From positions 1 to 64,000 of IMG/VR virus record IMGVR_UViG_3300025769_000099: DNA of 64,000 bases; one strand, 5' to 3'. Shown piece after piece: positions 13,309-47,297 of this stretch. The DNA is from a virus. Numbering within the stretch: the stretch's first letter is position 1; each line of letters opens with the position of its first letter. The notes under the pieces are model-generated. The model was not told the origin of the DNA. It saw only the letters and a list, made by a program, of their open reading frames with translations, and searched no databases. The translations under genes were made by a program, and so were the position numbers.

Positions 13309-13653
13309 TTAAGATTTTGAACCTGATGTTCTTCTGTTTATATCATCATGGTTAAATTCAGCCCAGTATAATTCAAACGCAACACCATCTTCTAATCCTT
13401 CAAACTGATGGAATTTACCAGGTTTAACCATAGTAAAATCACCAGCTTCAAGTATTGTTTCATCAACTAATCCCTGATCGTCTTGCCAAACCCTTATTAT
13501 CATCTTACCAGACTCAACAAAAAATCCGTTCCATTTAAATTTATGTTCATGCTCTGAACATTTGAATCCTTTATTATATTCTATTCTGTGAAACTCTAGT
13601 ACACCATTTTTGTGTACCATTTCGGTTTTACCCCATACTTTTCCTGCTTTCAT
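13309..13653 (-). CDS. Single-domain cupin protein
   Basis: 114 residues. The cupin motif 1 region CSEHEHKFKWNGFFVESG supplies His/Glu metal ligands, and motif 2 is GDFTMVKPGKFHQF. It abuts the JmjC-like gene (stop/start share a base), so the two oxygenase-type beta-barrel proteins probably work together, perhaps in sugar or small-molecule modification for the adjacent glycosyltransferases. Confidence 0.7.
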   Translation of the reverse strand: MKAGKVWGKTEMVHKNGVLEFHRIEYNKGFKCSEHEHKFKWNGFFVESGKMIIRVWQDDQGLVDETILEAGDFTMVKPGKFHQFEGLEDGVAFELYWAEFNHDDINRRTSGSKS

Positions 13654-14459
13654 TATTTTTGATTGTGTTTAAAATAAGGTCTTTTCCAAGTCTGTGAAGT
13701 CATTGGAAACCTTCTGTTAATAACTACCTTTTTTGTTTTTGTCACTGTTGGATTAAGATTCCACCATTTTTCCCTAACATTTTGTTTTATAGATGTTATC
13801 TTAAATTTATCTAAAGACTGTTCTTTTTTATTTTTAAAATGAATACTACATAGTATTCTAGGGCCAACAGTATCTACTTTGTGAAACTGATATTGTGGTA
13901 TGTATAGCAAATCACCAGCATCTAGTACAAACTCATCTATAATTGTTTTAGGTTTATCTGGCGCAAACTCTTTATATATAGTCCATTTAACCTTACCTTC
14001 TTGATGAAACAAAAAGTTTTCTGTTTTATCACAATGAGCAGGAAAGCTTTTTGATCCTTTACTTGGCGAAGCATATACGTTGCATTGACCATGACCAAAA
14101 TATCTTTCAAACTCAAAACACATATCTACTAATTTTTTACTAGAGTACTCAGCAAAAGGAATTACTATACTTTTACCTTTCCACCATAAATCTACTATCT
14201 TACTCTTTTTAAAGAAGGGTTGTTTTAGTGCTTTGTGTTTATCTAAACACCATCTGTCACCTTTGTCATCATAATCTAATATCTGTAAACCTTTGATGTG
14301 TGGATATTTATTTACGTGACTAGATAAATCTTCCCACGTGTAGAGATCTTTAAATTTATTTCTTCTAAGTATTAAATGTTTTTTACCCCAATACTTTGAA
14401 AAAAATAAACTTTTGCCTACTGGATCTAGTATCTCTTCTAATGTTATTTGTTTTTTCAT
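13653..14459 (-). CDS. JmjC/cupin-type Fe(II)/2-oxoglutarate oxygenase-like protein
   Basis: 268 residues. The iron triad is visible as H142-x-D144 in PAHCDKTENF and H193 in YQFHKVDTV; AGDLLYIPQ just before the distal His is the classic RoxA/JmjC cupin signature. Related bacterial enzymes hydroxylate ribosomal proteins or other proteins. It starts 4 bases downstream of nrdA in the minus unit. A role in modifying a host or virion protein is inferred. Confidence 0.7.
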   Translation of the reverse strand: MKKQITLEEILDPVGKSLFFSKYWGKKHLILRRNKFKDLYTWEDLSSHVNKYPHIKGLQILDYDDKGDRWCLDKHKALKQPFFKKSKIVDLWWKGKSIVIPFAEYSSKKLVDMCFEFERYFGHGQCNVYASPSKGSKSFPAHCDKTENFLFHQEGKVKWTIYKEFAPDKPKTIIDEFVLDAGDLLYIPQYQFHKVDTVGPRILCSIHFKNKKEQSLDKFKITSIKQNVREKWWNLNPTVTKTKKVVINRRFPMTSQTWKRPYFKHNQK

Positions 14460-14463
14460 ATTT

Positions 14464-16185
14464 TTATCCGTCGCAGCTTAAACAGTTTGGATCCATTGCT
14501 TGCTTAGCTATATCACCTCTAAGAACTGATTCAGTTCTCATATAATATAGAGTTTTAACACCTTTCTTCCACGCGTCTAGATGAACCTTGTTTATAAACT
14601 TAGGTTCTGCTTCTGAAGGAAATGCTAAATTTAAGCTAACAGATTGATCAACATACTGTTGTCTAATACCTGCTTGATTAATTAGTTCTAATTGATTTAT
14701 TTCTTTGAAAGTTCTGAAGACTTCTTTGAGCGGTATATCGTGATCGCCCAATGTAATCTTCTCTAATGCTTTTACGCCCTGCACCGAGCCCCCGTCCTTT
14801 AAGATTTGGTCCCATATTTTTTTATTGTTTAAATTGTTTTCTTCTAATACTTTTTCAAGAGTTGGATTTTTACGTATGAACGTACCTTTTGCAGACTGGT
14901 CTGTGAATACATTAGCAGCCCAAGGCTCAATTCCAGGACTAATATTCCCAGATAACTTACTATTACTAACAGTAGGAGCAATAGCTCTAAGATGAGTGTT
15001 CCTAAATCCTGTACCAACGCACCATAACGGTTCGTTAAACGCTTCAGCCAAAGCCATACTAGCTCTTTCCGATTCAATTTTAATTTGACTAAAAATTCTT
15101 CTTGTTTCATATTGTGATAATAAACCTTCAAAAGGTAATCCTTTTTGTTGTAAGTATGTATGCCATCCAACCACGCCTAAACCTAGTGCTCTACCTTTTT
15201 CAGCAGATCTTACTGAGTTTTCAAACCCTCTTCTATTTTTTGCTTTTTGTATAAACTCTTCTAATACACCATCTAAAAACCATATACTATCATATATTAA
15301 GTTACTGTTTTTCCACTCGTGATATTTAGCTAGGTTTAAACTAGATAAACAACAAATAAAACTATGATTTTCATCTGTATGTAATGTAATCTCAGAACAT
15401 ATGTTTGTCATATGAACTTTTAAAGCATTATCCTTATAAGCTGAAGGGTTATTCTTATTAACATTACCTTTAAACATTATATAAGGTTCTCCTGTAGCTT
15501 TACGTTTTTGTAACAGCTTACCCCATTTACGCCTAGAAACCTTATCTCCATCTCTAAGCTTTCTCATAAACTTATCGCCAACTACAGCACATTGATGTAG
15601 GTTAAGTGATTGTCTATTCACATCTCCTTTAGGTTCTCTTATTTCTAACCAGTCTTCAAAATCAGCATGTTCAATATTTATATTAACAGAGGCAGCACCT
15701 CTTCTAACTGATCCTTGGTTTGTTGCTAGTATTGTAGAGTCATATATTTTACAGAAAGGCACAACACCATCTGATGTTCCATTACCTGTTATATTTGCAC
15801 CTGCTGGTCTAATTTGATTTATACCTATACCAACACCTCCACCGTGTTTAGCTAACAGCATCATCTCTAAATTCTTTTGACCTATGTCAATTATACTATC
15901 AGCAACATCAATACCAAAACAACTTATTGGAAAACCTTTATCAGTACCAGTGTTACTAAGCACAGGACTAGCAAGACAGAGCCAACCTTTCCAGATGTAA
16001 TCAAAAAAGACTTCTTCCATTTCTTTTTTCTGTAATCTATTCGCAACTGTCTTAGCAACTCTTCTGTACGCTTGTCTTGGTGTTTCATCTTCTAATAAAT
16101 ATCCTCCTTGTATTGTTTTTTTATATACGTCGGACTCTGCCCAACTTGGGTAGTCTATACCCTTTTTCCATCTATTGCTCCACAT
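14464..16185 (-). CDS. nrdA: Ribonucleotide reductase class I large subunit
   Basis: 573 residues, short because the N-terminal ATP-cone regulatory domain is missing. Active-site residues are present: C89 in PISCFGI, N261-x-C263-x-E265 in NICSEI, the partner Cys in FICCLSS, and the tyrosine pair in YYMRTES. The C-terminus carries a CLSC redox pair. It reduces ribonucleoside diphosphates together with NrdB, encoded just upstream with one small gene between. Loss of the ATP cone suggests relaxed allosteric control, common in phage enzymes. Confidence 0.95.
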   Translation of the reverse strand: MWSNRWKKGIDYPSWAESDVYKKTIQGGYLLEDETPRQAYRRVAKTVANRLQKKEMEEVFFDYIWKGWLCLASPVLSNTGTDKGFPISCFGIDVADSIIDIGQKNLEMMLLAKHGGGVGIGINQIRPAGANITGNGTSDGVVPFCKIYDSTILATNQGSVRRGAASVNINIEHADFEDWLEIREPKGDVNRQSLNLHQCAVVGDKFMRKLRDGDKVSRRKWGKLLQKRKATGEPYIMFKGNVNKNNPSAYKDNALKVHMTNICSEITLHTDENHSFICCLSSLNLAKYHEWKNSNLIYDSIWFLDGVLEEFIQKAKNRRGFENSVRSAEKGRALGLGVVGWHTYLQQKGLPFEGLLSQYETRRIFSQIKIESERASMALAEAFNEPLWCVGTGFRNTHLRAIAPTVSNSKLSGNISPGIEPWAANVFTDQSAKGTFIRKNPTLEKVLEENNLNNKKIWDQILKDGGSVQGVKALEKITLGDHDIPLKEVFRTFKEINQLELINQAGIRQQYVDQSVSLNLAFPSEAEPKFINKVHLDAWKKGVKTLYYMRTESVLRGDIAKQAMDPNCLSCDG

Positions 16186-16186
16186 A

Positions 16187-16438
16187 TTATGTTATTAAGT
16201 GTTTTATCCATGCAATTAAACCATTAAGATTTAACGCTACTAAATTCCATTGTTTTCTTGATCCTGTCTGTACCATAACACAAATAAAACCTATTATATA
16301 TAACCAAGGTTCTAATGTCCATTGTGCAGCTACTAGAAAGCCAGCACCCATATATCCAATACGGGTTGCCATCCTTTCTAATACTGTTAACTGTCTTTTT
16401 CTTTCGACAAGAAACTTTTTAAATTTATAACTTACCAT
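16187..16438 (-). CDS. Small membrane protein between nrdB and nrdA
   Basis: 83 residues. A basic N-terminus is followed by about two hydrophobic segments (RIGYMGAGFLVAAQW and WLYIIGFICVMVQTG). It overlaps the end of nrdB by 7 bases and is 1 base from nrdA, so it is translated within the same message. No known function; small membrane genes inserted in this way are common in marine phages. Confidence 0.6.
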   Translation of the reverse strand: MVSYKFKKFLVERKRQLTVLERMATRIGYMGAGFLVAAQWTLEPWLYIIGFICVMVQTGSRKQWNLVALNLNGLIAWIKHLIT

Positions 16439-17400
16439 ACGTCTTCAAAATCTTCTCCTTCATTTGCCTTACTATAGTCAGTTGACCTAATCGCGAAAAA
16501 ATCAGTGTGGGTATGACCCCCAGTAAGATGATAGAACCAATCCAAATTACCCGCTGCTTCTTCGTCATATGAGAAGTACGATCCGAGATCCACGTAACCA
16601 AGTTCTTGTAATTTTTCATTAGTTCTTTTTCTTATAAATTGTTTTAGGTCATAAGACTTTATACCATCTATATCACCCATTTCAAACATCTTTTCTATAT
16701 ACTTCTCTTCTAACTCAACCATTATCTTAGCTGCATCTACAATATCATCTCTACAGTCTTCTAATAAGCTTTTATCTTCCTCGCACATGTGTCTAAATAA
16801 TTGACAACCCATACGGCTATGTAAAGACTCATCTCTGACTGACCATTTCATTTGTTGGCCAATACCTTTAAGTAAATTACGTAGCTGAAAGCTATACAAA
16901 ACGGCAAAAGCAGAGTATAAAGAAACTCCTTCTGCGAAAGCAGAAAAAACAGCCAATGACTTTGCGATACCTCTTTTATCGTTGCCATCATATGCAACGA
17001 GGTTATCAAAACGCTCAGCCGTAGCTGGTTCATGAAGAAACGCTTCATAATCTTCTAATTTTAATGTTTCATTTAAATAGCTATAAGCTACAGCGTGTAC
17101 AGTTTCCTGTGAGCCAAACATCATAGCCATTTGTTGTATCTCATGTTTAGGAAACCAAGATACAACCTTCTGAGTCCAGTAATCACTTACCGCACATTCA
17201 GTCTGAGCAAAACCTAGCAGGATATTTCCCACTAGGTGTTTCTCTTTAACAGTTAAAGACTCATTCCAGTCCTTAACATCTCCACTCATAGGTATTTCGG
17301 TATGTAACCAAAATGCTTGAGCTTGTTTTAGCCAACCTTCTGTATAGTACTCAGGGTACTCAAAAGGTTTATATGCAATACGTTCATCGAATAGTCCCAT
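16432..17400 (-). CDS. nrdB: Ribonucleotide reductase class I small subunit
   Basis: 322 residues. All metal ligands can be assigned: E68, E99, H102, E157, E191 and H194, with the radical tyrosine at Y106 in the E-x-x-H-x-x-x-Y pattern (ETVHAVAY). This is the Tyr-bearing class I type. It pairs with NrdA encoded downstream and supplies dNDPs for phage replication. The start is an ATG 1 base past the stop of a 46-residue gene. Confidence 0.95.
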   Translation of the reverse strand: MGLFDERIAYKPFEYPEYYTEGWLKQAQAFWLHTEIPMSGDVKDWNESLTVKEKHLVGNILLGFAQTECAVSDYWTQKVVSWFPKHEIQQMAMMFGSQETVHAVAYSYLNETLKLEDYEAFLHEPATAERFDNLVAYDGNDKRGIAKSLAVFSAFAEGVSLYSAFAVLYSFQLRNLLKGIGQQMKWSVRDESLHSRMGCQLFRHMCEEDKSLLEDCRDDIVDAAKIMVELEEKYIEKMFEMGDIDGIKSYDLKQFIRKRTNEKLQELGYVDLGSYFSYDEEAAGNLDWFYHLTGGHTHTDFFAIRSTDYSKANEGEDFEDVW

Positions 17401-18282: not shown

Positions 18283-19078
18283 CTTTTACAAATGTTCCGT
18301 TAATCATCTTGCCGGTTCTTTTACTTATGACATCATACGCTGTTGCTATACATGCCTCAATCTTAACACCTTCTAAATGTGCTAAGTTTGTAAGTACTAC
18401 TACCATATCACCAATAGCGTCTATAACTTCTGGCTTATCGTTTTTTAATAAAGCTTTTGCAAGTTCTCCAGCTTCTTCTTGTAGTTTAACATATTGTGTG
18501 TGTGAATTACCCTGTTGGTATAATCCTCTTACCAGTGCCCACTTTCTAATTTTATCAAATACATTTGATTTACTAGTAGCTTCCTCACTGTGTAACATTT
18601 CATGAACAACTGCGTGCTCATATTCAATAGGGTTTTTTTGAAAGTTTGACATAGCTTTGTTATATACATAGCTTCTGTCATTATTAAACATCGAGGTTTT
18701 AACGTTTTTCATTATCCAATTAACTAAGTCTAATGTTAATTTAAAATCCCCATGTTCTGTTTTCCATGTCATACCAATGTTATCCATTAGTTGTCCTTTA
18801 AGTTTATTGACTGGACAAGGAAAAGTCGTGGTTTGTTCGGTCACGTTTATCTTCATATTCTTATTTGGTTTAAGGTTTCTATAAGGTACTAGATCTACTC
18901 TGTACCCATACTCTCTCTGTCTTTCAAGCTCTAAACAAGATATATAATCTATATCATCTGATGTTTCTAATATCTCATATTCATCAGGACCATATCCTTG
19001 TTGTATTGTGACCCGGTTATTAAGATCACAGGTAACACCGATCTTTTTACCCGGTATATGATATAAATAATACGTCAT
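18272..19078 (-). CDS. GIY-YIG-like domain fused to MazG pyrophosphatase
   Basis: 268 residues in two parts. Residues 1-70 start YYLYHIPGKKIGVT, like a GIY-YIG-type nuclease N-terminus in which the first motif is degenerate. Residues 190-268 form a MazG domain with E201, E202, E205, E217 and D220 in the EExxE...ExxD pattern. MazG enzymes hydrolyse NTPs or dNTPs to monophosphates. It overlaps the dCMP-hydroxymethylase-like gene by 4 bases. Whether the nuclease half is active is doubtful. Confidence 0.65.
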   Translation of the reverse strand: MTYYLYHIPGKKIGVTCDLNNRVTIQQGYGPDEYEILETSDDIDYISCLELERQREYGYRVDLVPYRNLKPNKNMKINVTEQTTTFPCPVNKLKGQLMDNIGMTWKTEHGDFKLTLDLVNWIMKNVKTSMFNNDRSYVYNKAMSNFQKNPIEYEHAVVHEMLHSEEATSKSNVFDKIRKWALVRGLYQQGNSHTQYVKLQEEAGELAKALLKNDKPEVIDAIGDMVVVLTNLAHLEGVKIEACIATAYDVISKRTGKMINGTFVKDEN

Positions 19079-19716
19079 AATTTATCGTTGTATAAATGCA
19101 TGTTATGTGCATGATGATAATACCATCCGACGTCAATAGACAGTCTCTCTGCAATCATTTGTTGTAATGATGAAAATTGATACTGATCGTTACAGAAACC
19201 GTACCAGATGTCATTAGAACGCATATACACAGACATACAAAGTTTGTTGTTAATTATTGTAAACTGTATTGCATATGTACAAGGAGTATCTTTACGATAC
19301 TTTTCATATTCTTTACAGTCATATATACTAATAGCAGCGTGTCTAGTATTAGGATTATCTCTTAGTTTAGCCACTACATAATCTATTTGATTATTACGTT
19401 GCCATTGATAACCGTAATTACTATTTACTTCTCTATCGCTATTAGCCATCTTTTCCCATATAGGTGGAACCTTACCGTATAACTCACCTAGTTTGTCTAT
19501 ACTAGGATCACCCGATAAGTACCATTGCCATTCAGCTTCTGCATATTCATGAGACCATTTTCTATACTTGTTTTTAATATGATTGTCTAATGGATCTTCT
19601 ATTGTGAAGCCTACATTAAACAAAGCTTTAGTATTATCAAAGTCTACACCTTCTACTCTTAACTCGTGTAGTATGCAGTTGAATGCTTCGTTAGCATTTA
19701 AAAATTTAGTTCGCAT
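19075..19716 (-). CDS. Thymidylate synthase-fold enzyme, predicted dCMP hydroxymethylase
   Basis: 213 residues from the chosen ATG at 19716; an upstream ATG at 19776 would overlap the previous gene by 71 bases. From the chosen start the numbering matches E. coli ThyA: C146 (nucleophile, in TPCTYAIQF), R166, S167, D169, and D177 where ThyA has N177. Asp at this place is the known switch from dUMP to dCMP (T4 gp42 has it). The stretch MRSNDIWYGFCND closely follows the T4 gp42 pattern. Predicted product: 5-hydroxymethyl-dCMP. A plain dUMP enzyme is the alternative. Confidence 0.75.
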   Translation of the reverse strand: MRTKFLNANEAFNCILHELRVEGVDFDNTKALFNVGFTIEDPLDNHIKNKYRKWSHEYAEAEWQWYLSGDPSIDKLGELYGKVPPIWEKMANSDREVNSNYGYQWQRNNQIDYVVAKLRDNPNTRHAAISIYDCKEYEKYRKDTPCTYAIQFTIINNKLCMSVYMRSNDIWYGFCNDQYQFSSLQQMIAERLSIDVGWYYHHAHNMHLYNDKL

Positions 19717-19948
19717 ATTTTTTATAATAATATAATTGATATTCTGATATTTTTTGCCATATAACTCCAGGTCCAAAAGACTCAGGTGATGTACCTATTC
19801 TAACTCTGTTAGGCCAAACACCTTTTTCTACATCTACTAGCCATTTACTTTCACCCCATTTTTCTTGCCTAGGTGATATACATATATTGTTTCTATTACA
19901 CCAAAGCATAGCTTCATTTTCTTCAGGAGTTCTTGTGTGTGAACCCAT
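19706..19948 (-). CDS. Hypothetical 80-residue protein
   Basis: Start set at the ATG at 19948, with AAAGGAAT upstream as a ribosome-binding site; a longer frame begins at 19990 but would overlap the primase gene. It begins MGSHTRTPEENEAMLWCNRNN and ends Tyr-rich. Lies 13 bases after primase-helicase and overlaps the hydroxymethylase-like gene by 11 bases. Not recognised beyond being a recurrent marine-phage type. Confidence 0.55.
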   Translation of the reverse strand: MGSHTRTPEENEAMLWCNRNNICISPRQEKWGESKWLVDVEKGVWPNRVRIGTSPESFGPGVIWQKISEYQLYYYKKYAN

Positions 19949-32894: not shown

Positions 32895-34466
32895 ATGGAA
32901 TATAGTCAACCTAGTGAGATTGTAAAAGATCTCAACTTTGGCGTCGATGCTAAAGGTAAAATTATGAATGGTGTAGATAAACTAGCAAAAGCTGTTAAGT
33001 CTACACTAGGAGCTTCTGGTAAGTGTGTTATATATGAAGACACATTTGGTAGACCACTGGTTACAAAAGATGGTGTAACCGTTGCGGATAGCGTAGTCTT
33101 ATACGACCCGGTGGAAAACATAGGTGCAACACTTATTAAAGAGGCTTCTAAAAACACAGTGAAAGAAGCAGGTGACGGTACTACTACAGCTATCGTCCTT
33201 GCTGAATCACTATTAAAAACTGCAATAGAACCTGAATACAAAGATATAAGTATAAGGGAAATAAAAAGTGGTATAAAATCAGGCTACGATAAAGTAGTGG
33301 ATTACATAAAAAACAATACAACACCAGTAACAGGTGATACATTAAGCCATGTTTCTGCAATAAGTTGTAATAATGACAAAGAATTAGGTGAGTTAATATC
33401 TAGTACCTATAATAAAGTGGGTAAAGATGGTGTTGTTTTACTAGAAGAAAGTGAAACAGATGTAACTTACGCTGATATTGTTGAAGGAGTGCAAATAGCA
33501 TCAAAGCTTACATCTCCTCATTTTGTCACAAATAAAGACAGACAGCTGTGTGAGCTTGAAAATCCGTATGTATTAATAATAGCATCGGAAATACCTAATA
33601 TTAGAAAGATACAATCTATATTAGAACATATTATAAAGACTAATAGAAGTTTACTTATTGTAGCTTCTGTAAGCACACAGGTAAAATCTGCACTATTAAT
33701 GAACAAGGTTAAGGGTAATATTAAGGTAAATATTATTGACACACCTGGTTTTGGTGCAAATAAAAGAGATACAATAGAAGATTTAGCGCTTTTAACTGGT
33801 GCTAAAGTTATAGACGAAGAGTTAGGAGATGATTTAGATCTGATCCGACCAGATTGTTTAGGTGAAGTAGTAAAATCTGTAACAGATAACAGAACTACAG
33901 TCCTGACAACTGGTTTGTTACAAGACGAGGTCTCTAATAGAGTTAAAGAAATCGAAAAAAAGATAACAGAAACCAAAGATCCTTTCTTTAAAAAGAAATA
34001 TCAAGAAAGATTAGCTATGTTAAGCGGTTCTGTGGGTGTTATTAAAGTAGGTGCTAACTCAAAAATAGAATTAAAAGAAAAGAAAGACAGAGTTGAAGAT
34101 GCAATTTACGCAGTTAAGGCTGCTTTGCAAGAAGGAATTGTTCCTGGAGGCGGAATAGCACTGTTAAATGCTTCAAATACTGTAAAACCAAAGAATTTTG
34201 GCGAAGAAATACTAATAAAAGCCATAAAATCACCATTTTTAACCATAATGTCCAACGCAAGTATCGAAGAATACGATCTACCTACTAAAAAAGGTGATGG
34301 ATATGACGTTACTAGCGGTAAAATAGTAAATATGGTAGATTCTGGTATTGTAGATCCTGCTCTCGTTACTAAAACAGCACTAAAAAACGCAGTTAGTGTT
34401 GCTACAACTATAATTTCTGCGGATTGTATAATTTCAAACATAAGATTAGACAATGCGAGCAGTTAA
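32895..34466 (+). CDS. groL: GroEL-type chaperonin
   Basis: 523 residues, slightly short of bacterial GroEL. The ATP site is clear: GDGTTT (residues 93-98) and the catalytic segment TKDGVTVA near 57-64; GIVPGGGIALLNA is the conserved C-terminal nucleotide-binding segment. No GGM tail. Likely helps fold phage capsid or enzymes. Order here is groEL then groES, the reverse of most bacterial operons, with a 14-base overlap. Confidence 0.93.
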   Translation: MEYSQPSEIVKDLNFGVDAKGKIMNGVDKLAKAVKSTLGASGKCVIYEDTFGRPLVTKDGVTVADSVVLYDPVENIGATLIKEASKNTVKEAGDGTTTAIVLAESLLKTAIEPEYKDISIREIKSGIKSGYDKVVDYIKNNTTPVTGDTLSHVSAISCNNDKELGELISSTYNKVGKDGVVLLEESETDVTYADIVEGVQIASKLTSPHFVTNKDRQLCELENPYVLIIASEIPNIRKIQSILEHIIKTNRSLLIVASVSTQVKSALLMNKVKGNIKVNIIDTPGFGANKRDTIEDLALLTGAKVIDEELGDDLDLIRPDCLGEVVKSVTDNRTTVLTTGLLQDEVSNRVKEIEKKITETKDPFFKKKYQERLAMLSGSVGVIKVGANSKIELKEKKDRVEDAIYAVKAALQEGIVPGGGIALLNASNTVKPKNFGEEILIKAIKSPFLTIMSNASIEEYDLPTKKGDGYDVTSGKIVNMVDSGIVDPALVTKTALKNAVSVATTIISADCIISNIRLDNASS

Positions 34467-39946: not shown

Positions 39947-42589
39947 ATGAAGTGGTTATGGAATAGAATAGATTTTTGGGGCACGAGCACTGTTAAATCT
40001 ACTTCAAAAATTACAACTAAGTCTACTAGTACTAGTAAGTCAACCACGACTACATTTAGTACTAGCAAGTCTACTAGTACAGAATACAATACTACTACTA
40101 GTACACTAACGACTACTACTTTCAATACCACAAAAGATACAACAACTACATTTGAAACTCAAAAAAGTACTAACACGGTATATAATACCCAAACAGCTAC
40201 TAATACTGCTTTTGTAACTGCTTATAATACTAGCACAAGCACTACAACAACTTTTGCTACATCTAAATTAACTACAAAAGATACTGTTACAACGTATAGT
40301 ACGGATAAAACAACAAGTACAGAATACAACACATCCACTACTACGGCAACAACCACGGTTTATAATACTAGTAAAACAACGAGTACTGTATTTAACACTA
40401 CAACTACAACTACAACTACATACTCAACAGCTTACAATACATCCACATCAACAAAAACACAATTTTCTACTAGTAAAACTACAAGTACCGCTTTTGTGAC
40501 TACTTACAACACTAGTACAAGCACGTCAACCGCTTACAATACAAGTACTACAACTACCAAATCAACTACAACAACATTTGGAACTAGTAAGGCGACTAGT
40601 ACTGTGTATATAACTAATAGACTTACAACTACAACTTTTAACACTAGTACAACCACTATTTTTGTAACAGCTACTGTATATCAAACTACTAAAACAACTA
40701 ATACAGTTTTTAACACATCTACAGTAACTAAATACAATACATCAACTTCTACAACTGTTAGTACTAGTAAAGTAACGCTAACGCAGTATAATACATCTAC
40801 AAACACTACAACTACTTTTGCCACAAGCAAGGTAACTAATACAGTATTTAATACATCTACATTAACTACTAAAAATACTACGACTGTATATACGACTTCT
40901 TATAATACTACTAGAGTAACAAACACTATAACTATAACTCATTTTAATACTCAAACTACTACAGTATATAATACTAGCACAGCTACTACCACTACATATA
41001 ATACATCTACAGCTACTTTTAAAAATACTACAACAGTATTTAATACTAGTACTGTAACTAAACGTAGTACAACAACAGTCTATAACACTAGTACAACTAG
41101 AACAATAAACGATACGGCGAGAGATACTACAACTACTTACAATACTGTGTATCAAACTTTCTTGCAAAACACTATTACAAATACAGCTACTATATATCAG
41201 ACTAGTACTACAACAACGACAACATTTAATACTAGTAAATCTACTTCAACTGTTTTTGTAACAAGTAGAGTTACTGATAAAGACACTAGCACAGCTTACA
41301 ACACTAGTACGGTTACAGTTAAGAGTACAAACAAAAGTACAAGTACAACTTATAATACTAGTACGTCTACATCTAAAAATACTACAACTACGTTTGCTAC
41401 GAGTAAAAATACAACTACAACGTATAATACAAGTAAAACTACTAGCACCGTATTCAATACAAGTACGTCAACTAACACTATATATACTACAAGCTGGAAC
41501 ACTACTAAAACTACTAATACAGTATATAATACTAGCACGACCACTACTACAACGTATAATACATCAACGTCAACTAGTAAAAACACGACAACAACGTTTG
41601 GAACTAGTAAGAACACTACTACTGCTTATAACACTAGCACTACTACTGTTACTGAATATACAACAACTTTTGCAACGGGTAAAAACACTACCACTACTTT
41701 TGCAACTTCTAAAACAACGTCAACAGTGTTTAATACTAGTACAACTACTACTTACACCACGTCAACGGTTTATGCAACTAGTAAAAATACAACTACTACG
41801 TTTGCCACTAGCAAGAGTACAACTACTACGTTTTCTACGAGTAAAAACACTACTACTGTTTATAACACTGGTACAACTACTTATTTTAACACAAGTACCG
41901 TGACTAATAGGTTAACAAGTAGAATTACTAATAAAAACACTAGTAGAGGAACAAGTAAAAACACGACAACTACGTTTTCTACCACATATGCTACGGCTTA
42001 TCAAGCAGATTACACTACAACTTACTTAACCGTTTATTCTACAGCAGCAAGCACAACTAGTGCTTTAAGATCTAGTGCATCTAGCTTCTTCTTCTCTTGT
42101 AACGAGTTTTGTACTAGTACGTTTTATTTCACAGGAGGTTCTTATCCTCCAACTGCTGGGACATCATTTGCTTATACAAACTCTGGTGGTACTAGTGCTT
42201 TAAGTGATGCTTGGTATGGTATTAGCAATACTTTCGGAGGCGCACAACATCAAATGAGAACGTCTGGTGGCGCAGGTGGAGTTCAAGTTGTTAACGTGTG
42301 TTCTGGTGGTGGTGGTTTCTCTGATAGAAGACACAAGAAAAACATAAAGTTAATAGGTAAATCTAAAAAAGGATTTAATATATATAGCTTTGAGTTTGGT
42401 GGTACTAAACTAGGTGATAAAGCTGCTAAAAAATGGCCTGGAAGATGGCAAGGTGTTATGGCTGATGAATTAGAATATTTAGATGATGGTACTGTTTACA
42501 GAATGATGCTAAGCGATAAAAAAGATGACTACGTTAACTTTGTAGATTATGGTAGAATAGATGTTGAATTTAAAATATGTATGGCATGA
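39947..42589 (+). CDS. Thr/Ser/Asn-repeat fibre with C-terminal S74 chaperone domain
   Basis: 880 residues. Roughly the first 700 are almost pure Thr, Ser, Asn, Lys with an aromatic residue about every 10 positions (units like YNTSKTTSTV, FNTSTTTTT). A short Gly/Ser-rich head follows, then FSDRRHKKNI (S792-D793), the start of a peptidase S74 intramolecular chaperone domain, with the QGVMADEL motif. S74 domains trimerise fibres and cut themselves off at the Ser. So this is a long trimeric spike or fibre; the repeat fold is unknown. Confidence 0.8.
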   Translation: MKWLWNRIDFWGTSTVKSTSKITTKSTSTSKSTTTTFSTSKSTSTEYNTTTSTLTTTTFNTTKDTTTTFETQKSTNTVYNTQTATNTAFVTAYNTSTSTTTTFATSKLTTKDTVTTYSTDKTTSTEYNTSTTTATTTVYNTSKTTSTVFNTTTTTTTTYSTAYNTSTSTKTQFSTSKTTSTAFVTTYNTSTSTSTAYNTSTTTTKSTTTTFGTSKATSTVYITNRLTTTTFNTSTTTIFVTATVYQTTKTTNTVFNTSTVTKYNTSTSTTVSTSKVTLTQYNTSTNTTTTFATSKVTNTVFNTSTLTTKNTTTVYTTSYNTTRVTNTITITHFNTQTTTVYNTSTATTTTYNTSTATFKNTTTVFNTSTVTKRSTTTVYNTSTTRTINDTARDTTTTYNTVYQTFLQNTITNTATIYQTSTTTTTTFNTSKSTSTVFVTSRVTDKDTSTAYNTSTVTVKSTNKSTSTTYNTSTSTSKNTTTTFATSKNTTTTYNTSKTTSTVFNTSTSTNTIYTTSWNTTKTTNTVYNTSTTTTTTYNTSTSTSKNTTTTFGTSKNTTTAYNTSTTTVTEYTTTFATGKNTTTTFATSKTTSTVFNTSTTTTYTTSTVYATSKNTTTTFATSKSTTTTFSTSKNTTTVYNTGTTTYFNTSTVTNRLTSRITNKNTSRGTSKNTTTTFSTTYATAYQADYTTTYLTVYSTAASTTSALRSSASSFFFSCNEFCTSTFYFTGGSYPPTAGTSFAYTNSGGTSALSDAWYGISNTFGGAQHQMRTSGGAGGVQVVNVCSGGGGFSDRRHKKNIKLIGKSKKGFNIYSFEFGGTKLGDKAAKKWPGRWQGVMADELEYLDDGTVYRMMLSDKKDDYVNFVDYGRIDVEFKICMA
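39990..42060 (+). repeat. Degenerate decapeptide-coding repeat, first fibre
   Basis: About 30-bp periodicity at the protein level (aromatic-N-T-S-x-T-x-T-x-x). Synonymous codons are mixed, so DNA copies are not identical, yet ACTAGT hexamers (Thr-Ser) recur densely. The antisense frames give only Val/Leu-rich or Ser/Cys-rich nonsense. Confidence 0.75.
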
Positions 42590-43140
42590 TAGATGAAAGT
42601 TTAATACAAGAGTTTGATGGAAACGAATTTGAAATAAATAAAATAACTAAAGCTATCGATGCTGATAATAGTGAGGTTGTTTCAGAGTTAAAATACAAAT
42701 CAGACATAATACACAAGTATTATAATAAAGAAATAGAAGCTAAAATAAAAACTGGTAGTTGTGACACTTGTGGTCATGATGATCTACAAGCTGCATTTAA
42801 TGGTGCAACATGGGGAGATATACTTGTTTTAGGTTTAGGTTTAGGTGTTGTGCCTGAATATATAATAGATAATAAAAGTCCTAGCAGCGTTGATGTTGTT
42901 GAGGACAACGCGCAAATAATAAGCAAAGTTACTTGGTTAGATTCTGATATAAACGTTATAAATGGTAATGAATTTTCTTATACAACAGATAAGAAATACG
43001 ATATAATAATATGCGATATATTTGCAGAACCTACAGATGTTACTGAAGATAACAAGGATACATTGTTAAGCAACTATAGTAGTAATTTAAAAGCTGGAGG
43101 TAGAATAATTATACCTGTAACAGAAGAAATAATAAGTTAA
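42586..43140 (+). CDS. Spermidine-synthase-like/class I methyltransferase fold protein
   Basis: The start at 42586 overlaps the fibre stop (ATGA); an earlier ATG at 42577 is possible. 184 residues. GDILVLGLGLGVVPEYI is a Rossmann SAM-binding loop, VDVVEDNAQI carries the acidic residue at the end of strand 2, and YDIIICDIFAEP corresponds to strand 4. It resembles spermidine-synthase-like methyltransferases and lies between two fibre genes; it may modify them. Confidence 0.65.
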   Translation: MIDESLIQEFDGNEFEINKITKAIDADNSEVVSELKYKSDIIHKYYNKEIEAKIKTGSCDTCGHDDLQAAFNGATWGDILVLGLGLGVVPEYIIDNKSPSSVDVVEDNAQIISKVTWLDSDINVINGNEFSYTTDKKYDIIICDIFAEPTDVTEDNKDTLLSNYSSNLKAGGRIIIPVTEEIIS

Positions 43141-43141
43141 T

Positions 43142-45271
43142 ATGCCAAATACTAGTAGGAACACGTCGAGAATAACTCAGACAAACACGATACAGAATAC
43201 GTCTAGAAATACTTCTTCAAGTACTTCTACGGCATATTCTACTGTGTTCAATACTAAGTATACTACTTACTGGGGTACTTATTATACTACAAGTTGGCAA
43301 ACTCAAAGAGGAACAACTCACTCAACCTCTAAAAGCACATCAACAACTTTTAACACAAGTAAGAGTACAACTACAACTTTTAATACAAGTAAAAGTACAA
43401 CTACAACTTTTAACACAAGTAAGAACACAACAGAGTCTCGTACTACTACTATTAGTACTAGTAAAAACACTACCACTACTTTTAATACTAGTAAAACTAC
43501 GTTCACTACTTACAACACTAGTAATATAACTACTAAAAATACAGTTACAGCGTATAATACCACTACAACAACTGTAACTTCGTTTAATACTACTAAGACA
43601 ACAGAGACTACTTTTAATACCTCTTATAATACAAGTAAGAATACAACTACGACTTATAGTACTAACAAAAATACTACGACTACATTTATTACATCTAGTA
43701 TAACTAATAAGAATACAACAACAACTTTTAGTACAAGCAAGAATACAACTACGACTTTTGCAACAAGTAAAACGACGTTGACTACTTTTAATACAACTAA
43801 GACTACATTAACTACTTTTAATACAGCTTATAACACGTCTACTAATACGACGACTACTTTTAATACCGCTTATACAACAACGTATAACACGAGTACTAAC
43901 ACTAATACTGTATACACTACTTATTGGAATACTAGTAAAAATACTACAACTACATTTAGCACAAGTAAGAACACGACAACTACAATGATAACGATGAATA
44001 ATACGTTAGCAACAGTTGCCATATATAGAAACACGACCAGATCTACTAGTACTACAACTATAACAGCTTTTAACACTAGCACTACTACTGTATTTTCAAC
44101 TAGTAAAGCTACTCTAACGCATTTTTCTACAGCTTATAATACAAGTACTACCAAGCTAACATTAAAGAATACTACGTATAGTACAAACAAAAACACTAAT
44201 ACGGCTTATAATACAAGTACTGTTAAAACTATAGATACAGCTCGTGACACTAGTACTATTTATACAACTACATTTAATACTAGTACTATCACTAATACTA
44301 TAACTATAACTCAGTATACAACTACTGTGTCGACAAACAAAAACACAACTACCACGTTTAATACTAGTAAATCAACCTCTACGGCTTACAATACTAGCAC
44401 TACGACGACTACAGTTTACAATACGTCTACAACTACAGTATATATTACTGATAGATCTACAGCTCATTCTACTAACAAAAATACAACTACTACGTTTAAT
44501 ACTAGTAAAAATACAGTTACAAGTAAAGCTACTACGGTTAGTACTACAAAAGATACTTATACGATATTCAACACTAGTACAAATACTATAACAGCTTATA
44601 ATACTCAAACTACCACAAACACTGTTTATACAACAACGTATAATACTAGTACAAATACCACAACAGTATATAATACTACGACAACTACTAGTAAAGATAC
44701 GACTACAGTGTATAATACAATGACAAATACTGTAACACAGTACAATACTAGTACAAATACACAGAGATCTACGGTAACAACGTTTAACACATCTCAGAAT
44801 ACAACAACTACTTACAATACTAGTACAGCTGTAAATACTACTACAACGTATAATACGTCAACAAATACAACTACTGTTTACAATACTACTACGACTACTA
44901 GTACTGAGTATACAACAACGTATAATACTACTAAAAACACAACAACAGCTTATAATACTAGTACTACAACTAGCAAGAATACTCTTACTACTATTAGTAC
45001 GAATAAAAACACTACGACTACATTTAATACTAGTAAGACTACTACGACGACATTTAATACAACTAAGCAAACTAATACTACTACCGCGTATAACACAAGT
45101 ACTAATACTACTACTACGTATAACACGAGTACTAGTACCACTACAACGTTTAATACGACCACTACTTATACAACTACTTATAATACAAGTACTAGCACAA
45201 TAACATCATGGTATGCTGATGGTGGAAAGCAAGGTCAACTAGGTGAAAAACCTTTTAGTGACGGAAGGTAG
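43142..45271 (+). CDS. Second Thr/Ser/Asn-repeat fibre protein
   Basis: 709 residues, almost entirely the same decapeptide type (TTTFNTSKNT, TTTYNTSTNT). The ending is different: SWYADGGKQGQLGEKPFSDGR, with no S74 domain. The N-terminus is Arg/Asn/Thr-rich. Probably a paralogue of the first, differing in its tip; it may co-assemble. It may be cut or trimerised by another factor. Repeat-rich composition gives many potential O-glycosylation and N-x-T/S sites. Confidence 0.75.
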   Translation: MPNTSRNTSRITQTNTIQNTSRNTSSSTSTAYSTVFNTKYTTYWGTYYTTSWQTQRGTTHSTSKSTSTTFNTSKSTTTTFNTSKSTTTTFNTSKNTTESRTTTISTSKNTTTTFNTSKTTFTTYNTSNITTKNTVTAYNTTTTTVTSFNTTKTTETTFNTSYNTSKNTTTTYSTNKNTTTTFITSSITNKNTTTTFSTSKNTTTTFATSKTTLTTFNTTKTTLTTFNTAYNTSTNTTTTFNTAYTTTYNTSTNTNTVYTTYWNTSKNTTTTFSTSKNTTTTMITMNNTLATVAIYRNTTRSTSTTTITAFNTSTTTVFSTSKATLTHFSTAYNTSTTKLTLKNTTYSTNKNTNTAYNTSTVKTIDTARDTSTIYTTTFNTSTITNTITITQYTTTVSTNKNTTTTFNTSKSTSTAYNTSTTTTTVYNTSTTTVYITDRSTAHSTNKNTTTTFNTSKNTVTSKATTVSTTKDTYTIFNTSTNTITAYNTQTTTNTVYTTTYNTSTNTTTVYNTTTTTSKDTTTVYNTMTNTVTQYNTSTNTQRSTVTTFNTSQNTTTTYNTSTAVNTTTTYNTSTNTTTVYNTTTTTSTEYTTTYNTTKNTTTAYNTSTTTSKNTLTTISTNKNTTTTFNTSKTTTTTFNTTKQTNTTTAYNTSTNTTTTYNTSTSTTTTFNTTTTYTTTYNTSTSTITSWYADGGKQGQLGEKPFSDGR
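43250..45190 (+). repeat. Degenerate decapeptide-coding repeat, second fibre
   Basis: Same unit and period as the first fibre repeat, with more uniform copies (FNTSKNTTTT runs) near the start (43340-43430), suggesting recent duplication there. Confidence 0.7.
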
Positions 45272-45322
45272 ATAACTGTAAAAGCGTGTAACTATTATAA
45301 ATAACGAATAAAATTTAATTAT

Positions 45323-46219
45323 ATGGAAATGTTTAACAAAAAAGAGTTGGACAAAAGAATTGGTCCACTCAGGAAAAATGACTCACTGTATCAACTAGAA
45401 CAAGTTGAAGGGTATGTCATTAGAAAATGCCAAGAAAAAGGCATAGAAACTAGTTATGATGTAATGGCTGAAGAAATGCCTTACTTTAAAACTATAGGTT
45501 ACACAGAATATGCTGGTAACTTTTATTTACAACCTTTAAACTTTAAAATGCGTAACGAGCAAATGTCTGATGCATGGCATCATAATACTAAAGACGTTGC
45601 AGATTATGCGTCTTGGTTAGTTAAAAATGTTGTAGATAAAAACTCTAACAAATACAAGCATAGAACAGAAGAAATTGATAAATATCCTGCTAAAGATTAT
45701 TTAGTGGTTCTTCCAGGTTCTAACAAGCTAAGAGAAAACGTTTGTTTAAATAAATTAAAACATGTTGTTAATAAACATGGTAACAATGTTTTATTTAAAC
45801 CACACCCTATAACAACACATCAGATTATAGGTGAATTAAAAGACTTCTTTGGTGAAGAAAATATACTACCAAAGAACGTAGATATGTACTACTACATGCA
45901 GAAAGCTAAAGGAGTGTATTCTACACAAATAAGTGAAAGCGCATTATATGCAGCTGTTTTAGGTAAAAAAATAGAACCTGTAGATGTATGGAACAATATA
46001 CAAAGAGGTTCTTTTTATTGCGTAAATAGTTATATATATTTTAATCAAGACAATATCAAAGAGTACGTGAACAGAACTTTTTCTAGTTATAAATCTGGTA
46101 TCATAAATCCAGAGTTAGATAAAGACTGGAAAAAGAAAGTTGATGATTACATAGAATATATATGTGAAAAAAGAGAGAAGTATAAAGATTGGTATATAGC
46201 TGTACCAAAGAAAAAATAA
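45323..46219 (+). CDS. GT-B/polysaccharide-type glycosyltransferase-like protein
   Basis: 298 residues. DYLVVLPGSNKLR and NVLFKPHPITTHQ, then SESALYAAVLGKKIE, match the KpsC/KpsS or TagF-like retaining-GT core (KPHP and S-E-S...G-K). Directly follows the second Thr-rich fibre. A plausible fibre or capsule glycosyltransferase; function inferred. Confidence 0.6.
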   Translation: MEMFNKKELDKRIGPLRKNDSLYQLEQVEGYVIRKCQEKGIETSYDVMAEEMPYFKTIGYTEYAGNFYLQPLNFKMRNEQMSDAWHHNTKDVADYASWLVKNVVDKNSNKYKHRTEEIDKYPAKDYLVVLPGSNKLRENVCLNKLKHVVNKHGNNVLFKPHPITTHQIIGELKDFFGEENILPKNVDMYYYMQKAKGVYSTQISESALYAAVLGKKIEPVDVWNNIQRGSFYCVNSYIYFNQDNIKEYVNRTFSSYKSGIINPELDKDWKKKVDDYIEYICEKREKYKDWYIAVPKKK

Positions 46220-46490: not shown

Positions 46491-46692
46491 AATAAGCGTA
46501 GGTAGAGATTATAAAAACGAAGCAATGCATTACTCCGTAGGCCAAGATGTTTACGGAGGACATGTCATTTCTGATATAATCGAAGAAGATGATAAGTATA
46601 AGATACTTATTAAGAAAGGTGATGAAATATTACCATGGAAAGATTTTAATAAGAATATGGCTATAGCTGTTGAATATAATTTAGAATATTAG
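46471..46692 (+). CDS. Hypothetical 73-residue protein
   Basis: Basic N-terminus (MKNLIRKISVGRDYKNE) and a small beta-rich body; overlaps the coiled-coil gene by 20 bases. Unrecognised. Confidence 0.55.
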   Translation: MKNLIRKISVGRDYKNEAMHYSVGQDVYGGHVISDIIEEDDKYKILIKKGDEILPWKDFNKNMAIAVEYNLEY

Positions 46693-47297
46693 TGAAAAGT
46701 GTTTTAAACTTTATAGTAAAACCTTTAAACAACAATAGATATAATAATAAGAAAAAAGTAGGAGACAAAGAGTTAATACTTAATGCTGAAAACTTTTCTC
46801 ATCAATATGTTAATAGACATGCTGAAGTTATAGCTATACCTAGTGTTGGTGAAACTAATATACAGGTTGGTGATATTGTTATAGTACATCATAACGTATT
46901 TAGAAGGTGGAATGATATTAGAGGTAGGGAAAAAGATAGTAAATCATATTACAGAGATGATATGTATTTTGTATTTCCAGATCAAATATTTTTATACAAA
47001 CATGATGGTGTTTGGAATGCTAATGACACTTTTTGTTTTGTTAAACCTATAGAGTCTTTATCTAATAGTATTTTTGATAATGAAAAAGAGCAACCTTTAG
47101 TTGGTATACTTAAATACGGAGATAAATATTTAAAACAAGCTGGTTTAAAATCTGGCGATTTAATAGGTTTTAAACCTAACACTGAATATGAGTTTGTTAT
47201 AGACGATCAAAAGCTATATAGAATATTCAGCAATTCAATTACAATTAAATATGAATATAAAGGAAAGGAAAAAGAGTATAATCCAAGCTGGTTATGA
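46692..47297 (+). CDS. GroES-like-fold hypothetical protein
   Basis: 201 residues with a GTG start sharing a base with the previous stop. The region AEVIAIPSVGETNIQVGDIV then VIVHHNVFRRW resembles a GroES/Cpn10-type barrel with an inserted loop. May aid folding of virion proteins, or be structural. Tentative. Confidence 0.5.
   Translation: MKSVLNFIVKPLNNNRYNNKKKVGDKELILNAENFSHQYVNRHAEVIAIPSVGETNIQVGDIVIVHHNVFRRWNDIRGREKDSKSYYRDDMYFVFPDQIFLYKHDGVWNANDTFCFVKPIESLSNSIFDNEKEQPLVGILKYGDKYLKQAGLKSGDLIGFKPNTEYEFVIDDQKLYRIFSNSITIKYEYKGKEKEYNPSWL

What the first reader, a model, noticed from the sequence alone, without database searches (positions are those of the whole stretch)
39947..46219. Possible mucin-like glycosylated fibre system
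Two fibres built almost wholly of Thr/Ser/Asn decapeptides flank a methyltransferase-like gene and are followed by a glycosyltransferase. Two more glycosyltransferases, a cupin and a 2OG oxygenase are encoded elsewhere. Dense hydroxyl residues, and N-x-T/S sites, make heavy glycosylation plausible; the phage may display a sugar-coated fibre.
Basis: inference. Interest (0 to 1): 0.75.

Follow-up and report, generated by a model that had tools for sequence, protein, structure and literature searches.

The report
Two phage fibre proteins paired antiparallel
A marine phage carries two long threonine-rich fibre genes whose products vary in length together and gain or lose same-sized pieces at mirror-image positions, which means the two different proteins very probably lie side by side, head to tail, and build one very long fibre.

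Summary
The two Thr/Ser/Asn-rich ORFs are real: A, 39947-42589, 880 aa; B, 43142-45271, 709 aa. The methyltransferase-like gene between them and the glycosyltransferase-like gene after B are also there. The important fact is not glycosylation. In 33 related phage loci the A and B repeat lengths match almost exactly (432-1202 aa, r = 0.9995, mean difference 11 aa). Between close relatives, A and B gain or lose pieces of identical size at mirror-image positions: 16 of 23 events match antiparallel, 1 parallel, 1.9 +/- 1.3 expected. Within single genomes the aromatic residues of A line up with those of reversed B in 31 of 35 loci. I conclude that A and B pair antiparallel, in register, along their whole length. 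The repeats form two-faced extended strands (Thr/Tyr/Phe/Lys on one face, Ser/Thr/Asn on the other), so the shaft is most likely an antiparallel beta-needle, probably A3B3, like the T4 gp37 needle but built by two genes and perhaps 130-400 nm long. Glycosylation stays possible: a GT-B-like gene always follows B. 'Mucin-like' does not fit. The pairing is well supported; the oligomer and its place on the virion are inferred.

The parts
39947..42589 (+). Fibre protein A (880 aa): conserved N-terminus MKWLWNRIDFW, Thr-rich repeats to about residue 709, then a C-terminal tip/chaperone domain
   Evidence: ORF; repeat statistics; relatives
39947..42073 (+). Repeat shaft of A, residues 1-709. Register with B: A1-403 with B696-294, A406-637 with B293-62, A668-709 with B61-20
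   Evidence: antiparallel alignment on aromatic positions
42047..42586 (+). C-terminal globular domain of A (residues 701-880), confidently folded in AlphaFold2 (pLDDT mostly 65-92)
42320..42475 (+). Peptidase_S74-like intramolecular chaperone motif (FSDRRHKKNIKLIG..WQGVMADE), A residues about 792-843
   Evidence: PF13884 matched by 23 of 24 relatives, best E 2.7e-6; weak in the window protein itself (E 0.21)
42577..43140 (+). Class I methyltransferase-like gene between the fibres (187 aa)
   Evidence: PF05175 E 7e-4, PHROG 3820/15480; spermidine-synthase and methyltransferase PDB matches E 0.02-0.07
43142..45271 (+). Fibre protein B (709 aa): Thr-rich repeats to about residue 689, then a short tail ...WYADGGKQGQLGEKPFSDGR
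   Evidence: ORF; relatives
45323..46219 (+). Glycosyltransferase-like protein (298 aa, FKPHP motif), always directly after B
   Evidence: PHROG 26179 unknown function; 39 of 39 loci at 55-69 bp after B; weak GT-B-like fold matches

Best explanation
A and B are the two strands of one fibre shaft. Step 1 (shown by comparative evidence): their repeat regions lie side by side, antiparallel and in register over the whole length. A's N-terminus is therefore next to B's C-terminus, and A's C-terminus next to B's N-terminus. Step 2 (strongly suggested): each chain is a very long, almost continuous extended beta-strand with two faces, one of Thr/Tyr/Phe/Lys and one of Ser/Thr/Asn/Val. Aromatics of A sit opposite aromatics of B about every 10 residues. 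Step 3 (inferred): an isolated two-stranded ribbon would not be stable. A's C-terminal S74-type chaperone implies trimers, so three A and three B chains probably form a six-stranded antiparallel needle. This is the out-and-back arrangement of the T4 gp37 needle, but with the 'out' strand made by A and the 'back' strand by B. At about 0.3-0.34 nm per residue the shaft would be roughly 210-240 nm here and 130-400 nm across relatives. Step 4 (inferred): the N-terminus of A with the C-terminus of B is the virion end, and the C-terminal domain of A is the receptor-binding tip. The methyltransferase-like and glycosyltransferase-like genes assist or modify the fibre.
For: Length match: r = 0.9995 in 33 loci, A repeats 439-1202 aa, mean difference 11.3, sd 7.6 aa. 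Mirror-image indels between relatives, each locus used once: 16 of 23 A events have a same-size B event at the antiparallel position, 1 at the parallel position, random placement 1.90 +/- 1.31 with maximum 8 in 5000 trials. In L026 vs L047 all five events match (-40, +56, +12, -10, -20) at A 77/522/629/737/811 and, from B's C-end, 77/539/631/740/813. L123 vs L125 (about 97% identical) differ by the same 68 aa at A 159 and B-from-end 163. Register inside single genomes: aromatics of A against reversed B beat rotated B in 31 of 35 loci, parallel in 2 of 35. In the window the gapped antiparallel score is 92.5, parallel 52.9, unrelated B at most 48.8. Lys/Arg-Lys/Arg pairs, which were not scored, are depleted to 0.2x. 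Two faces: aromatic face 60-63% Thr, 21% Tyr/Phe/Trp, 11-13% Lys/Arg; other face Ser/Thr/Asn. Even-sized indels 119 of 125. In the length outlier L022, A lacks the tip domain and B has a globular insert near its N-terminus, so the tip moved between chains but stayed at the same fibre end. S74 chaperone in 23 of 24 A relatives. No inverted DNA repeat links the genes.
Against: AlphaFold2 on a single A chain gives no fold for the repeats (pLDDT about 25); a multimer could not be run. L014, L017, L024 and L071 show no significant gapless register, and L017 scores slightly better parallel. In the window a gapless parallel register is also nominally significant (p = 0.003). The loci are related, so their register results are not independent. 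The S74 match is weak in the window protein itself, and the L022/L033/L044 group lacks that domain. No virion proteomics or cultured isolate exists here to show that A and B are in the virion.
Confidence: 0.75

Rival explanations
1. A:B pairing is antiparallel and in register, but the assembly is not an A3B3 tail needle: for example A2B2, a stacked or amyloid-like sheet, or a fibre on the head or inside the particle.
For: The sequence evidence fixes the pairing, not the stoichiometry or location. Some relatives lack the S74 domain that suggests trimers.
Against: S74-type chaperones act on trimeric phage fibres and most A relatives carry one. Similar GT-like genes sit in tail-fibre clusters of cultured Caulobacter phages.
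Confidence: 0.2
2. Mucin-like, heavily O- or N-glycosylated, largely disordered fibres.
For: High Thr/Ser content; a conserved GT-like gene beside B in all loci; unstructured AlphaFold2 model of the repeats.
Against: Strict two-faced periodicity, even-sized indels and antiparallel length matching need an ordered paired structure. The GT family is only weakly supported. No further GT genes were found among the proteins scanned.
Confidence: 0.1
3. A and B are separate homotrimeric fibres (beta-helix or solenoid), and their lengths match only because both must reach the same distance.
For: Equal total length alone would fit.
Against: Does not predict same-size indels at mirror-image positions, or aromatic register with reversed B inside single genomes. 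AlphaFold2 gives no autonomous fold for the A repeats.
Confidence: 0.04
4. A DNA-level effect: linked recombination, inverted repeats or gene conversion changes both genes together.
For: The genes are only about 550 bp apart and repetitive (84 same-strand matches).
Against: No opposite-strand match exists between the two genes. Direct-repeat exchange would give parallel, not mirror-image, order.
Confidence: 0.01

Closest known systems
T4 long tail fibre gp37 needle (D11 stem, residues 882-931 and 960-1009)
   Same: Thin shaft of extended chains that run out to the tip and come back, so neighbouring strands are antiparallel; trimeric (PMC9603124).
   Different: In T4 one protein makes both strands with a turn at the tip and the stem is about 50 residues each way. 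Here two genes make the two directions, over 430-1200 residues, in even-length Thr-rich units.
Phage tail fibres with an intramolecular S74 chaperone (endosialidase, T5 pb1)
   Same: C-terminal chaperone domain following a fibrous shaft (T5 homotrimer with C-terminal chaperone, PMC4690869).
   Different: Those shafts are homotrimers of one protein; here a second, length-matched protein is paired with the shaft.
Triple-stranded beta-helix (T4 gp5)
   Same: Slender beta-structured trimeric shaft with short repeats (PMC4576200; PMC3004832).
   Different: gp5 has parallel, intertwined identical chains with octapeptides; here two different chains pair antiparallel.
Length-matched heteropolymers such as collagen I or keratin pairs (from general knowledge)
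   Same: Two different long repeat proteins co-assemble and must match in length.
   Different: Those are parallel and helical; this one is antiparallel and beta-type.

Membership tests
T4 gp37-type antiparallel needle | Neighbouring strands run antiparallel along the shaft | tested here: met
   Mirror-image indels and reversed-B aromatic register
T4 gp37-type antiparallel needle | One chain makes both directions with a turn at the tip | tested here: not met
   A and B are separate genes in all 39 loci; the single-chain hairpin scan gave no convincing fusion
T4 gp37-type antiparallel needle | Three-fold symmetric stem of six extended strands | not testable with these tools
   No multimer prediction or structure available
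S74-chaperone tail fibre | C-terminal Peptidase_S74 domain | tested here: met
   23 of 24 relatives match PF13884, best E 2.7e-6; the window copy alone is weak, E 0.21
S74-chaperone tail fibre | Autocatalytic release of the chaperone | not testable with these tools
   Needs protein
Mucin-like glycosylated domain | Irregular, disordered Thr/Ser-rich sequence | tested here: not met
   Strict two-residue register, even-sized units and indels
Mucin-like glycosylated domain | Glycans on Thr/Ser | not testable with these tools
   Needs mass spectrometry
GT-B glycosyltransferase (45323-46219) | Match to a glycosyltransferase family or fold | tested here: inconclusive
   No Pfam or NCBIfam match; PHROG 26179 unknown function; low-confidence model (pLDDT 56) with MnaA/TagF/SenB/NeuC matches at E 0.01-0.06
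Class I methyltransferase (42577-43140) | SAM-binding Rossmann motif | tested here: inconclusive
   PF05175 E 7e-4, below the curated cut-off; PDB methyltransferases E 0.02

The most novel reading that the evidence does not exclude
A protein 'duplex' fibre: two genes encode complementary, length-matched antiparallel strands with a residue-level pairing code (aromatic opposite aromatic about every 10 residues, Lys/Arg seldom opposite Lys/Arg). It assembles into a phage needle up to about 1200 residues long, with the tip domain able to move between the two chains at the same end.
Probability: 0.55. Interest if true: 0.93.

Novelty: new variant of a known kind. Interest (0 to 1): 0.85.

Why it matters
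I know of no phage fibre shaft built from two different proteins that run antiparallel in register, and the searches made here found none. It would give a simple two-component beta-fibre whose length is set by repeat number. It would also be a natural case where the pairing of two proteins can be read directly from matched indels. And it would explain a widespread, so far unannotated feature of marine phages related to flavobacterial podoviruses.

Tried and rejected
AlphaFold2 on 360 residues of A: the repeats were not folded, and the structure search with that model was uninformative. tblastn of A, its C-terminal part and the methyltransferase against cultured phages found nothing. A search for natural single-chain A-B fusions that could be folded found none convincing. 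The first position-matching of indels ignored the length of deletions and undercounted matches (14 of 24); corrected. Circular rotation is a weak control for the gapped score, because the unrotated part still aligns, so the comparison with unrelated B chains was used. The gapless parallel signal in the window (p = 0.003) was set aside because gapped scores and relatives favour antiparallel. A coiled coil was rejected because the period is 2, not 3.5. Literature searches for Thr-rich or hetero-oligomeric phage fibres found no earlier description.

Full report
WHAT IS THERE. The window is part of a 65.5 kb virus record. Its terminase is 62% identical to an environmental podovirus (Manatee Spring) and 44% to Flavobacterium 'elemo' podoviruses. 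A related gene copy lies in a Flavobacteriales metagenome bin, so the host is probably a flavobacterium (inference). The finding covers four genes in one orientation: fibre A (39947-42589), a methyltransferase-like gene (42577-43140), fibre B (43142-45271) and a glycosyltransferase-like gene (45323-46219).

REPEATS. A and B are 43% and 46% Thr in their repeats, and the autocorrelation peaks at 10 residues far above shuffles. Units are 10 residues with inserted 4-, 8-, 12- and 14-mers. Almost everything is even: aromatics sit at even spacings (2062 even against 216 odd in A, 2119 against 211 in B, pooled over loci), and internal indels between relatives are even in 119 of 125 cases. The chain is thus two-faced. 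The face with the aromatics is 60-63% Thr, about 21% Tyr/Phe/Trp and 11-13% Lys/Arg; the other face is Ser/Thr/Asn with some Val/Ala. This is what a very long extended beta-strand looks like.

MODULE. Scans of viral contigs with the GT-like protein, A and the methyltransferase gave about 140 loci. In all 39 loci with both fibres complete, the GT-like gene begins 55-69 bp after B, and one or two methyltransferase-like genes lie between A and B.

LENGTH MATCH. In 33 loci with the short spacer the A and B repeat lengths correlate with r = 0.9995, although A runs from 439 to 1202 residues; the mean difference is 11.3 with sd 7.6. Loci with a longer enzyme between the fibres also match (575/576, 601/602, 712/712). 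L049 has a broken A frame (one search shows the rest in a second ORF). L022 is the one real outlier: its A has no tip domain and its B carries a globular insert near the N-terminus. That is exactly the end at which A's tip domain sits if the chains are antiparallel.

MIRROR-IMAGE INDELS. I aligned close relatives chain by chain and compared the indels, using each locus once. Of 23 events in A, 16 have an event of identical size in B at the antiparallel position (offsets -19 to +11 residues); 1 matches in parallel; random placement gives 1.90 +/- 1.31 with a maximum of 8 in 5000. L026 against L047 matches five of five. L123 and L125 are about 97% identical and differ by the same 68 residues in both chains at mirror positions. 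L087 against L130 matches five of five before nearby events are merged. Recombination of the whole cassette or slippage in direct repeats cannot give mirror order, and the genes share no opposite-strand DNA similarity.

REGISTER WITHIN ONE GENOME. Without any comparison between genomes, the aromatic positions of A coincide with those of reversed B better than with rotated B in 31 of 35 loci; forward B does so in 2. Best offsets are mostly near zero. In the window the gapped antiparallel score is 92.5, parallel 52.9, and unrelated B of similar length at most 48.8. The alignment pairs 49 of the 74 A and 71 B aromatics and maps A1-403 to B696-294, A406-637 to B293-62 and A668-709 to B61-20. Lys/Arg opposite Lys/Arg is depleted to 0.2x although it was not scored. 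Four loci (L014, L017, L024, L071) show no significant gapless register.

INTERPRETATION. A and B pair antiparallel and in register; I regard this as about 90% certain. Two strands alone would not make a stable rod. A ends in a domain that AlphaFold2 folds confidently and that contains a Peptidase_S74 chaperone in 23 of 24 relatives, a module of trimeric phage fibres. The T4 gp37 needle is a thin trimeric stem whose chains go out and come back (PMC9603124). The simplest model is therefore an A3B3 six-stranded needle in which A goes out and B comes back. At 0.3-0.34 nm per residue it would be 210-240 nm long in this phage. These last steps are inference: AlphaFold2 on one chain left the repeats unfolded, which is expected if the partner is needed but proves nothing.

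GLYCOSYLATION. The GT-like protein is highly conserved (65-99% in the loci), but no curated family covers it. Its model is poor (pLDDT 56) and only its Rossmann half resembles GT-B enzymes and UDP-GlcNAc 2-epimerases. Distant relatives lie in tail-fibre clusters of Caulobacter phages such as Lullwater. Fibre modification is a fair guess for this gene, but the high Thr/Ser content is explained by the beta-strand design and is no evidence of a mucin.

CONCLUSION. The finding is novel as a fibre architecture and is directly testable by co-expression and electron microscopy.

Noticed in passing
L033:4233-5276, L044:5744-6790, L022:5512-6555 (also L038, L049): In one subgroup the gene between A and B is a different methyltransferase fused to an apparent Hint/intein-like C-terminal domain (PF14890 E 0.005, below cut-off), and A lacks the S74 tip domain and ends in GGCxRGCI-like tails.
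   Followed up: partly
L076:5594-6707 and near-identical loci: Two methyltransferase-like genes in tandem between A and B; A ends in a glycine-rich tail instead of the S74 domain.
   Followed up: no
L054 and L024, A and B repeats: Long super-repeats of 98 aa in A and 96 aa in B; the A:B register drifts by 2 residues per super-repeat, so the chains are not exactly equal per unit.
   Followed up: partly
window 32895-34463 and 46692-47294: The phage encodes its own GroEL-like chaperonin and, just downstream of the GT-like gene, a GroES-like co-chaperonin; perhaps used for fibre folding.
   Followed up: no
window 13312-14459 (- strand): A cysteine-dioxygenase-like cupin next to a JmjC/cupin protein (PF08007 E 2e-15).
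   Followed up: no
window 14467-17400 (- strand): Large and small ribonucleotide reductase subunits; a thymidylate synthase at 19078-19776.
   Followed up: no
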